Assembly: GCA_022264855.1 (NCBI GenBank)
Contig: JABYQU010000017.1
Coordinates: 248,001-312,000 of the forward strand
Direction: 5' to 3'
DNA length: 64,000 bases
Origin: Lenzites betulinus
Lineage: Eukaryota; Basidiomycota; Agaricomycetes; Polyporales; Polyporaceae
Made by a program: the position numbers and the translations under genes. Positions 40,506 through 42,614 of the stretch are shown one piece after another. The stretch's first letter is position 1, and each line of letters begins with the position of its first letter. The notes beneath the pieces are model-generated. The model was not told where the DNA came from, did no database searches, and was given only the letters and a program-made list of their open reading frames with translations.

Positions 40506-42614
40506 ATGGGTATCGTGGAGAAGGTAGACATCCCTGCATCCTCTTGTGGCTGAAGACTCACCGTCTGTAGATCAAAGAAATCGAGGGTAAGCACATCGCG
40601 GGCTGACCCATGCCCTACCACGAGGAAGTTATCTAACACGGTATACGGCCGGAACACAGAGGAGATGGCGAGAAGTGAGCATGGCATCCATGTATTGGCG
40701 CTATAGAGCAATGACACTGAAAACGCTCGCAAATAGCGCAGAAGAACAAGGTGGGCGCGAATCGCCGACCGCCGACCGATCGAGCTGCTAAGTAAGGCGC
40801 GAAGGCGACGGAATATCACCTCGGTCTCCTCAAGGCGAAGCTCGCGCGCTACCGCGCCCAGCTCCTCGAGCCCACCGCCAAGTCGGGCGGCGCGGGCACT
40901 GGATTCGATGTCCAGAAGTCCGGAGACGCCAGAGTCGCCCTCATCGGCTTCCCCTCAGTAGGAAAGGTCGGTGTTTTCGTCGCCTCGCCTGCCGCTGTCC
41001 TTATCCCCGCGATTTTCCAATCCCGCAGTCAACCCTGCTCAGCAAGTGCACACACACGCAGTCCGAGGCGGCCGCATATGAGTTCACGACACTAACAGTA
41101 CGTCGGCGGCAAAAGGGACGCTTTATGGCTGGCGCTCATGATGCTATCAGGCAATCCCCGGTGTTATCGAATACCAAGGCGCGCGGATACAGCTGCTCGA
41201 TCTGCCTGGTATCGTTGAGGGGGCCAGCGCAGGCCGCGGACGTGGCCGACAGGTCGTGGCGACCGCCAAGACGGCCGATCTCATTCTCATCATGCTTGAC
41301 GCGACGAAGTCGGAGGAGCAACGGCGGCTACTTGAGATTGAGCTAGACGCGGTCGGCATCCGGCTGAACAAGACGCGGCCTGACGTCGTTTTCAGACGCA
41401 AGTCCACCGGAGGGGTGAGTGCCGCGAGCTTGCCGTAATCCTGACCCTCGGTTGAATTACCCCCGCCATGCATAGATTACGGTGAGATTGCCTCGTCAGC
41501 TTCGGGACCTGAAGTGTGCATTGACCACTATATCAGATCAACAAGACGGTGCCTTTGACCAAGACAGATGAGAAGACCATCAGGACAATCTTGGCTAGCT
41601 GTAAGTAGTACTCTGGTAGCCCATGTGGCCTACCCATTCATTGCGCGCGCTACGGTATAGACAAACTGCACAACTGCGACGTAATGATCCGGGAAGACGT
41701 AGGTTCTGTCCGTTCGTCGTCGATACCAGTCGCAGCTGACAGCGCACAGATCACCACCGACGAATTCATCGATGTATTGATAGGTATGTCCTTTACAAGA
41801 CGGCCACGAGGCGCTCTTGCCCTGATATCCCGCCGCAGGAACCCGCAAATATGTCCCGTGCCTGTGTAAGCAGCACCCTGCATCGTGTTGGCTTGCTCCA
41901 CTCATGATCCCTGTACAGATGTCTATAACAAGATTGACGCTATCAGCCTTGAGCAGATGGACAAGCTCGCTCGAGAAGACCACACTGTCGTGATTAGCTG
42001 CGAACTAGGGCTCAAGTAAGTGCTGCGCGCGCGAGCAAGCAATCGGAAGTACTCACGGCGTACCGCAATACACAGCCTGGACTATCTCATCGAGAAGATG
42101 TGGGAGGAACTTGACCTCGTAAAGGTGTACACCAAGAAACGGGGCGTGCATCCCGATCTCGACGACCCTGTTTGCCTAAGAAAGGGAGCTACGGTCGAGG
42201 TGGGTACCGCCCGTCGTTCGGCACCCGGCTACCGAAATGGGCGTTAGGTACTGACCTCATCTGGGGGATAGAGCGTCTGCAACGGCATTCATCGATCGCT
42301 GGCAACGAACTTCCGATACGCCTTGGTTTGGTGAGTGCAGACGCCACAAACTTTTTGTGTGCCGCCAGCTGACCGTTTCGGCAGGGTGAGTGAGCGCGCA
42401 GGCAGAAAGTTCTGCTCGACGGCTGCAGACGGGCTGACATCGGCCCTAGGGCAAGTCATCGAAGTTCAATCCACATGCTCAGAAAGTGAGCCTCAATCAT
42501 CACGTACTAGACGAGGACGTAGTGTCAAGTACGTTACCGTCCCTGTGCGGGCGCGCGCTAGGAGGTGGTGTTCTCAGACTAACGGACGGCGTGTTGACAG
42601 TCTTCACGAAATGA
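40506..42614 (+). CDS. DRG2: DRG2, developmentally regulated GTP-binding protein, microexon-rich
   Basis: DRG2/Rbg2 is a ribosome-associated TRAFAC GTPase that works with a DFRP partner. I read 18 exons: 40506-40523, 40571-40586, 40660-40674, 40737-40750, 40805-40966, 41029-41097, 41151-41414, 41476-41481, 41537-41600, 41661-41698, 41750-41783, 41839-41865, 41919-42015, 42076-42199, 42272-42330, 42385, 42450-42528 and 42601-42614. They sum to 1101 nt, 366 codons plus stop, close to the family length. The N-terminus reads MGIVEKIKEIEEEMARTQKN, then [21 protein letters not shown]1 is GFPSVGKST, G3 [10 protein letters not shown]4 NKID. The C-terminal TGS domain contains [13 protein letters not shown] and ends DEDVVSIFTK. 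Without the 1-nt exon the frame fails at the conserved Trp336. Confidence 0.93.
41476..41481 (+). other. DRG2: Candidate 6-nt microexon of DRG2
   Basis: ATTACG sits between an acceptor catag and a donor gtgaga. Including it gives [12 protein letters not shown], matching the residue spacing of animal DRG2 (GGISFNSTVTLT); skipping it deletes two residues in frame. The introns are 61 nt (41415-41475) and 55 nt (41482-41536). Confidence 0.75.
42385..42385 (+). other. DRG2: Candidate single-nucleotide exon of DRG2
   Basis: One G lies between an upstream acceptor gcag (42381-42384) and a downstream donor gtgagt (42386-42391). It completes the codon TG|G for Trp336 between YALV and GKSSKF. The flanking introns are 54 and 64 nt, each with its own gtgagt donor, a CTGAC branch point 11 nt before the AG, and an AG acceptor. 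Confidence 0.65.

What the first reader, a model, noticed from the sequence alone, without database searches (positions are those of the whole stretch)
42331..42449. Candidate single-nucleotide exon (G at 42385) in DRG2
The exon ending at 42330 stops after TG of the Trp codon in the invariant YALVWG motif, and the next conserved exon begins GGC AAG at 42450. No AG in the 119-nt gap gives an open frame in one intron: every candidate either shifts phase or meets the TGA in the branch point at 42434-42438. Treating the gap as two introns of 54 and 64 nt around one G solves it exactly. Each has a gtgagt donor, a CTGAC branch point 11 nt before the AG, and an AG acceptor. With this 1-nt exon the 18 exons total 1101 nt and the TGS domain is complete to DEDVVSIFTK. 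Skipping it would frameshift and stop 13 codons later (TGA at 42487). A very small number of 1-nt exons has been described (one in an Arabidopsis gene); I know of none in fungi. It also resembles a recursive-splice site that leaves one base behind.
Basis: partly seen in the sequence, partly recalled or inferred. Interest (0 to 1): 0.88.

Follow-up and report, generated by a model that had tools for sequence, protein, structure and literature searches.

The report
One-nucleotide exon in fungal DRG2 gene
A conserved housekeeping gene (DRG2/RBG2) in a bracket fungus appears to contain an exon of a single DNA letter, and errors in the public gene models of many related mushrooms suggest that the same one-letter exon is widespread among them and often missed.

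Summary
The gene at 40506-42614 (+) is DRG2/RBG2: 18 exons, 1101 nt, 366 aa. Between the exon ending TG (42330) and the exon starting GGC AAG (42450) one G is missing for the Trp codon of YALVWG. Two canonical introns of 54 and 64 nt around G42385 are the best of 30 in-frame paths to GGC AAG (18.4 against 8.8 bits). The only in-frame open single GT-AG intron ending before GGC deletes Val-Trp; the public Lenzites betulinus model takes it and is otherwise identical apart from small exons it skips, so the window is probably L. betulinus. Sequencing error is unlikely: relatives' gene models fail at this same codon. In the first search 48 of 94 annotated Agaricomycete proteins are broken there, against 1 of 24 transcript-like ones. 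Two failure types (18 lacking VW; 14 with one extra residue, each encodable by TNN) are what a missing +1 forces; they occur in six orders. Tremellomycetes are intact, 23 of 23. So a 1-nt exon, probably shared by many Agaricomycetes, is the best reading. It is not the first: plant APC11 and VPS55 and Fusarium CYP621A are published. No RNA or DNA of relatives could be read.

The parts
40506..42614 (+). DRG2/RBG2 gene, start codon to stop codon, 18 exons, 1101 nt CDS, 366 aa
   Evidence: model; Pfam MMR_HSR1, MMR_HSR1_Xtn, TGS; yeast Rbg2, 7nrc, E 1.7e-142; Polyporales proteins up to 95% identical
42272..42330 (+). exon 15, ends ...GCC TTG GTT TG (first two bases of the Trp336 codon)
42331..42384 (+). 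intron 15, 54 nt, GTGAGT ... CTGAC-CGTTTCGGCAG
42385..42385 (+). exon 16, the single nucleotide G, third base of the Trp336 codon
   Evidence: comparative evidence
42386..42449 (+). intron 16, 64 nt, GTGAGT ... CTGAC-ATCGGCCCTAG
42450..42528 (+). exon 17, GGC AAG TCA..., [26 protein letters not shown]
42326..42449 (+). rival single intron (donor GTTTGG, 124 nt); deletes Val335-Trp336, as in the public Lenzites betulinus model
41476..41481 (+). exon 8, 6 nt (ATT ACG, Ile-Thr), also left out by the public model

Best explanation
G42385 is a constitutive single-nucleotide exon of DRG2. It supplies the third base of the Trp codon in the conserved YALVWG segment of the TGS domain. Shown: the sites, the phases and the protein they give. 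Inferred: the two short introns are each recognised by intron definition and removed one after the other, because intron 15's AG is also the exonic side of intron 16's donor (cAGG|GTGAGT) and both cannot be occupied at once. The outer GT and AG are intact, so neither order is forced; which comes first is open. Inferred from gene-model errors: the exon is shared by many Agaricomycetes in at least six orders, with some lineages having the G joined to a neighbouring exon.
For: Best of 30 in-frame open paths, 18.4 against 8.8 bits; of the 5 with GT donors only, the sole one giving VWGK. The only in-frame open single GT-AG intron ending before GGC loses VW. Both introns fit the 47-73 nt range; 119 nt does not. 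VWG is kept in yeast Rbg2, in 48 of 51 transcript-like proteins (2 more have VYG) and in 24 of 24 annotated Tremellomycete/Dacrymycete proteins. This junction is the worst annotation spot of the gene: 40 of 95 by indel, next worst 25 of 95. In 112 annotated Agaricomycete proteins 18 lack VW (a -5 nt shift) and 14 have VW plus one residue (a +4 nt shift); both add the missing +1. The 14 residues are Y4 C4 S4 W1 L1, each encodable by TNN, as expected if the donor is TG|GTNNGT and the gene caller slid to the next GT; P(TNN) 0.19 per residue. Trametes polyzona P0143 reads exon 15 in the +1 frame and joins it to GKSS. In Lactarius and Armillaria one species shows the deficit and another shows G followed by donor-like codons.
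Against: No RNA of this species was available. 48 of 112 annotated Agaricomycete models are intact, and how they reach VWGK is unknown. Abortiporus P0054 decodes to ATHGG-GGAAAATCG: if H is A, a single phase-2 intron ending ATAG|GGGA would do there, so the exon is probably not universal. Within the gene, intron 15's donor (5.1 bits) and the acceptors of introns 15 and 16 (2.8 and 1.4) are the weakest of the 17 introns by a matrix trained on the other 15; intron 16's donor is strong, 9.1. An AG-G-GT candidate of any quality arises by chance in about 3.5% of such gaps. The second protein search was seeded with a VW-less model and so over-samples that class; the third was seeded with an intact protein. 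Annotated models are not independent of one another.
Confidence: 0.9

Rival explanations
1. Assembly or sequencing error: one G was lost at TTTGG|TGAGT or CTAG|GGC, and the real gene has one ordinary intron of about 119 nt.
For: Runs of G stand at both ends of the gap. Abortiporus seems to have AG|GGGA at this place (decoding of P0054). Only one assembly of this species could be read.
Against: The same +1 deficit shows in gene models of other species in six orders. The intron would be 119 nt where the other 15 are 47-73 nt. A well-formed AG-G-GT with matching splice sites in the gap would be coincidence (9 of 20000 shuffles, 19 of 24624 genomic cores).
Confidence: 0.03
2. A single in-frame intron with donor GTTTGG at 42326, so that the protein lacks Val-Trp, as in the public gene model.
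For: In frame and open; 18 annotated Agaricomycete proteins, the public L. betulinus model P0008 among them, have this form.
Against: Scores -3.7 bits against 18.4; VW is present in yeast Rbg2, in 23 of 23 Tremellomycete models and in 48 of 51 transcript-like proteins, 2 more having VY; Schizophyllum commune has one model with VW (P0048) and one without (P0124).
Confidence: 0.03
3. One non-canonical intron, cut one base off the GT-AG sites (TGG|TGAGT...CTAG|GGC), with AG-G-GT in the middle as chance.
For: Gives the same protein with one 118-nt intron; the base balance is identical (sequence).
Against: Needs a TG-AG or GT-TA intron in this gene and in each lineage with the deficit, leaves the length unexplained and the internal splice sites and branch point to chance. 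Lactarius and Armillaria models show G followed by donor-like codons.
Confidence: 0.03
4. The complex is a zero-length recursive splice site or a stwintron.
For: Acceptor and donor nearly abut; two successive excisions are needed.
Against: One nucleotide remains in the mRNA in the best path; the outer donor and acceptor are intact, so no outer splice element is interrupted (definition in PMC9024468).
Confidence: 0.01

Closest known systems
Fusarium CYP621A single-nucleotide exon (PMC12940212; abstract, Introduction, Results and Discussion read)
   Same: Fungus; G flanked as AG-G-GT; inside a conserved motif; gap more than twice the usual intron length; the missing base defeats ordinary gene models
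   Different: Ascomycete P450, middle base of a Gly codon; SRA reads cross it in two species; here a basidiomycete GTPase, third base of a Trp codon, no reads
Plant APC11 and VPS55 1-nt microexons (PMC4674806: part 1 of 3 read; PMC8831610: passages read)
   Same: Single-base exon between canonical introns, conserved over deep time and missing from reference annotations
   Different: Plants; RNA-seq, RT-PCR and (APC11) reporter tests done; the base is A in Arabidopsis APC11
Fungal mitochondrial rnl 1-nt exon between group II introns, Ophiostoma ips, with a similar case cited for Ceratocystis (PMC12308204: passages read)
   Same: Fungal exon of one base between two introns
   Different: Mitochondrial group II introns, not spliceosomal; rRNA gene
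Stwintrons [D1,2] of fungi (PMC9024468, PMC5639578: passages read)
   Same: Two U2 introns so close that they are removed in consecutive reactions
   Different: In a stwintron the inner intron splits a splice element of the outer one, order is forced and nothing is left; here one exonic base is left and the outer sites are intact
Placozoan mitochondrial cox1 single-base exon (PMC5436844; search listing only)
   Same: Exon of one base
   Different: Animal mitochondrial gene (title); not spliceosomal (recalled)

Membership tests
Single-nucleotide (1-nt) spliceosomal exon | One base flanked by AG upstream and GT downstream, with a complete intron on either side | tested here: met
Single-nucleotide (1-nt) spliceosomal exon | The base is needed for the reading frame of a conserved protein | tested here: met
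Single-nucleotide (1-nt) spliceosomal exon | The base is present in mature mRNA of this species | not testable with these tools
   No RNA reads; relatives' transcript-like proteins have VWG in 48 and VYG in 2 of 51
Single-nucleotide (1-nt) spliceosomal exon | Conserved in relatives at DNA level | not testable with these tools
   No fungal DNA but the own genome; indirect protein evidence only; one scan each of genome contigs and viral contigs gave no fungal locus
Zero-length recursive splice site (ratchet point) | AG directly followed by GT, no base left | tested here: not met
   AG-G-GT at 42383-42387; zero bases left would frameshift
Stwintron | Donor, branch point or acceptor of an outer intron interrupted by an inner intron | tested here: not met
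   Outer donor GTGAGT at 42331 and acceptor CTAG ending 42449 are intact
DRG2/RBG2 GTPase | OBG-type G domain, extension and C-terminal TGS domain; yeast Rbg2 as closest solved relative | tested here: met

The most novel reading that the evidence does not exclude
The DRG2 1-nt exon was present in an early ancestor of the Agaricomycetes and has been kept in many descendant orders, now and then dissolved by loss of one flanking intron. It would be a very widely shared fungal 1-nt exon, missing or misread in a large part of the public mushroom gene models. Incomplete splicing of its two introns may act as an off-switch for DRG2, since skipping the base, or retaining intron 15, ends the protein at or soon after Trp336 and removes the last 30 residues of 366, about 40% of the TGS domain.
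Probability: 0.6. Interest if true: 0.7.

Novelty: new member of a known kind. Interest (0 to 1): 0.62.

Why it matters
It adds a gene and, as far as the searches show, a phylum (Basidiomycota) to the handful of known spliceosomal 1-nt exons. It points to a systematic fault in published gene models of a conserved ribosome-associated GTPase. It also offers a method: a codon at which annotations of one conserved gene fail in the two ways that add one base flags a hidden 1-nt exon from proteins alone. How a spliceosome handles an exon smaller than either splice-site footprint becomes testable in a tractable mushroom such as Schizophyllum commune, which has a VW-less model (P0124).

Tried and rejected
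Sequencing error, Val-Trp deletion, shifted non-canonical intron, ratchet point and stwintron were considered and ranked low as above. Single introns ending inside exon 17 were looked at for donors 42331 and 42326: 1 of 8 and 4 of 8 acceptors are in frame and open, and each of these deletes more conserved residues. The first gene model ended exon 11 two bases early, so that the frame was lost, missed the 6-nt exon, split exon 17 and left out the last exon; it was replaced by the model. A direct repeat GGTGAGTG on both sides of intron 15 was considered as a trace of tandem duplication and set aside, because it is nearly the donor consensus itself. Intron statistics beyond this gene were not collected.

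Full report
What is there. The + strand gene at 40506-42614 encodes DRG2/RBG2. The rebuilt model has 18 exons, 1101 nt and 366 residues, Pfam domains MMR_HSR1, MMR_HSR1_Xtn and TGS (290-365), and yeast Rbg2 as best solved relative (7nrc, E 1.7e-142). The window lies in a 37.4 Mb genome of 108 contigs, and a 291-base stretch across the gap matches there once. The public Lenzites betulinus protein P0008 is identical to the model apart from places where it skips small exons or patches a junction, so the window is probably that species (Polyporales).

The gap. Exon 15 ends with TG of the Trp336 codon at 42330; exon 17 starts GGC AAG at 42450. Joining them directly gives 12 foreign residues after Trp and TGA at 42487-42489. 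With donor 42331, 9 acceptors in the gap were tested and none is in phase and open; among all 56 single GT-AG combinations tested (introns of 20 nt or more, acceptor in the gap) one is in frame and open, donor GTTTGG at 42326, which deletes Val-Trp. Acceptors inside exon 17 give five further in-frame open paths, each losing more conserved residues. With paths of one or two introns (GT or GC donors, introns of at least 35 nt, final acceptor fixed at 42449), 30 of 280 are in frame and open; 5 of the 30 use GT donors only, and of these only the 1-nt exon path gives VWGK. It scores 18.4 bits, the next path 8.8 and the Val-Trp deletion -3.7, by matrices trained on the other 15 introns. Results against: intron 15's donor (5.1) and the acceptors of introns 15 and 16 (2.8, 1.4) are the weakest of the 17 introns on that scale; intron 16's donor is strong (9.1). 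Both introns have CTGAC 11 nt before the end, and lengths of 54 and 64 nt lie in the 47-73 nt range of the other 15; 119 nt does not.

Chance. With the gap's ends fixed and its core replaced, a 1-nt G exon scoring at least as high arose in 9 of 20000 dinucleotide shuffles and 19 of 24624 cores from the rest of the window on both strands; any in-frame two-intron path as good arose in 116 and 120; any AG-G-GT 1-nt candidate, whatever its score, in 700 and 844. Branch points were not scored.

Relatives, first search. One search listed the best 120 of 7658 proteins. Of these 95 are genome-annotated (NCBI, UniRef, nr), 24 come only from environmental or assembly collections, mostly on short contigs (called transcript-like here, an inference from a continuous reading frame in a gene with 17 introns), and 1 (P0007) was dropped as not aligning in this part. 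By indels within three residues, the VW|GK junction is the worst spot of the gene: 40 of 95 annotated and 1 of 24 transcript-like. The next are the last small exon (25 of 95, 1 of 24), the 6-nt exon 8 (24 of 95, 0 of 24) and the junction of small exons 2 and 3 (24 of 95, but also 4 of 24 transcript-like). By a stricter pattern, 48 of 94 annotated Agaricomycete proteins (Calocera set apart) are not intact, against 1 of 24 (Fisher 1.3e-5).

All three searches. Together they give 187 proteins after dropping P0007. Annotated Agaricomycetes: 112, of which 48 are intact, 18 lack VW (class A), 14 have VW plus one residue (class B), 10 have longer inserts (C), 8 diverge after VW (D), 14 are other (E). 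Annotated Tremellomycetes: 23 of 23 intact; Dacrymycetes 1 of 1; transcript-like 50 of 51, of which 48 read VWG and 2 VYG (P0184, P0185). Class names, apart from the seven species looked up, are recalled. The second search was seeded with the VW-less model, so class A is over-sampled; the third with an intact Calocera protein, best 120 of 154 listed. The first search alone carries the rate.

Why the error classes matter. Losing VW moves the donor by -5 nt and adding one residue moves it by +4 nt; both add one to the frame, which no gene caller would need if the G lay next to either exon. In class B the added residues are Y4, C4, S4, W1, L1, each encodable by TNN, as expected if the true donor is TG|GTNNGT and the caller slid to the GT at +5. 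From this gene's intron composition P(TNN) is 0.19 per residue, and 0.19 to the 14th is about 7e-11; for F, L, S, Y, C or W by any codon it is 2e-8. These figures assume independent models, which they are not fully. A GTRAGT donor, as here, would give a stop in that slide and leaves class A, as seen for L. betulinus. Trametes polyzona P0143 reads exon 15 in the +1 frame and joins it to GKSS (RLQRHSSVAGDELPIRTGL-GKSS, against [19 protein letters not shown] for that frame here). Class A or B members with looked-up orders: Lenzites (Polyporales), Tricholoma (Agaricales), Hygrophoropsis (Boletales), Multifurca (Russulales), Coniferiporia and Phellopilus (Hymenochaetales), Gautieria (Gomphales).

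The second donor. Of the 18 class C and D models, 11 continue after TGG with V, and 8 of the 11 have S, R or C next, as GTRAGT, GTRCGT or GTATGT would give; 3 have L or M. In Lactarius, L. psammicola shows the deficit (VW-S) while L. deliciosus and L. vividus show VW-VRY...IPQ-GKSS, a 75-nt readable tail ending like CAG|GGC; in Armillaria, A. fumosa lacks VW and A. mellea reads VWVS. Within a genus this is the pattern TG|gt..ag|G|gt..ag|GGC, if gene structure is shared in the genus. P0074, the one broken transcript-like protein, ends VWVSCLKQHAC, as if intron 16 were retained after intron 15 was removed; a species with a single intron after TGG would look the same.

Limits. No DNA of relatives and no RNA could be read. 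Abortiporus P0054 decodes to ATHGG-GGAAAATCG before and into exon 17; if H is A, a single phase-2 intron ending ATAG|GGGA would do there, and P0003 of the same species is intact. The 48 intact models may rest on 1-nt exons found from transcripts, or on loss of either flanking intron; this is open.

How it works. Shown: canonical sites, phases and product. Inferred: intron-defined, sequential removal, because the AG of intron 15 is also the exonic side of intron 16's donor. Either order leaves intact sites. Skipping the G, or retaining intron 15 (stop right after Trp), removes the last 30 residues, about 40% of the TGS domain; retaining intron 16 replaces them by 62 foreign residues (86 if intron 17 is retained too). 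Whether this is regulated is not known.

Known cases. Arabidopsis APC11 (PMC4674806, part 1 of 3 read), plant VPS55 and APC11 (PMC8831610, passages), Fusarium CYP621A (PMC12940212, abstract, Introduction, Results, Discussion), which calls itself the first for a fungal gene. A fungal mitochondrial rnl 1-nt exon between group II introns is also described (PMC12308204, passages). Searches listed no basidiomycete nuclear or DRG2 case in the held open-access library, which lacks most subscription journals. Stwintron papers (PMC9024468, PMC5639578, passages) describe nested introns that leave nothing behind and force the order, which this does not.

Verdict. Real, and best filed as a new member of a known, very small class, with indirect but strong signs of wide sharing in Agaricomycetes.

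Noticed in passing
40506-40750: Four consecutive tiny exons open the gene: 18, 16, 15 and 14 nt; their junctions are frequent annotation errors in relatives (15-24 of 95 annotated proteins, 3-4 of 24 transcript-like).
   Followed up: partly
41476-41481: A 6-nt exon (ATT ACG, Ile-Thr) between introns of 61 and 55 nt; yeast Rbg1 has a matching segment (GGISITNTV); 24 of 95 annotated relatives err here, 0 of 24 transcript-like.
   Followed up: partly
40506-42614: The public Lenzites betulinus model P0008 lacks the residues of the 14-nt, 6-nt and 27-nt exons (the first partly replaced by other residues) and Val-Trp, and so is 351 instead of 366 residues.
   Followed up: yes
42386-42614: If intron 16 is retained after G42385 is joined, the frame stays open for 62 codons after Trp with intron 17 spliced, or 86 with it retained, ending beyond the normal stop.
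   Followed up: partly
43229 onward, + strand: The next gene seems to start with MGSIDALAPSLTDDVEFILLGTGTSSTIPH (read by eye), possibly a metallo-hydrolase; not searched.
   Followed up: no
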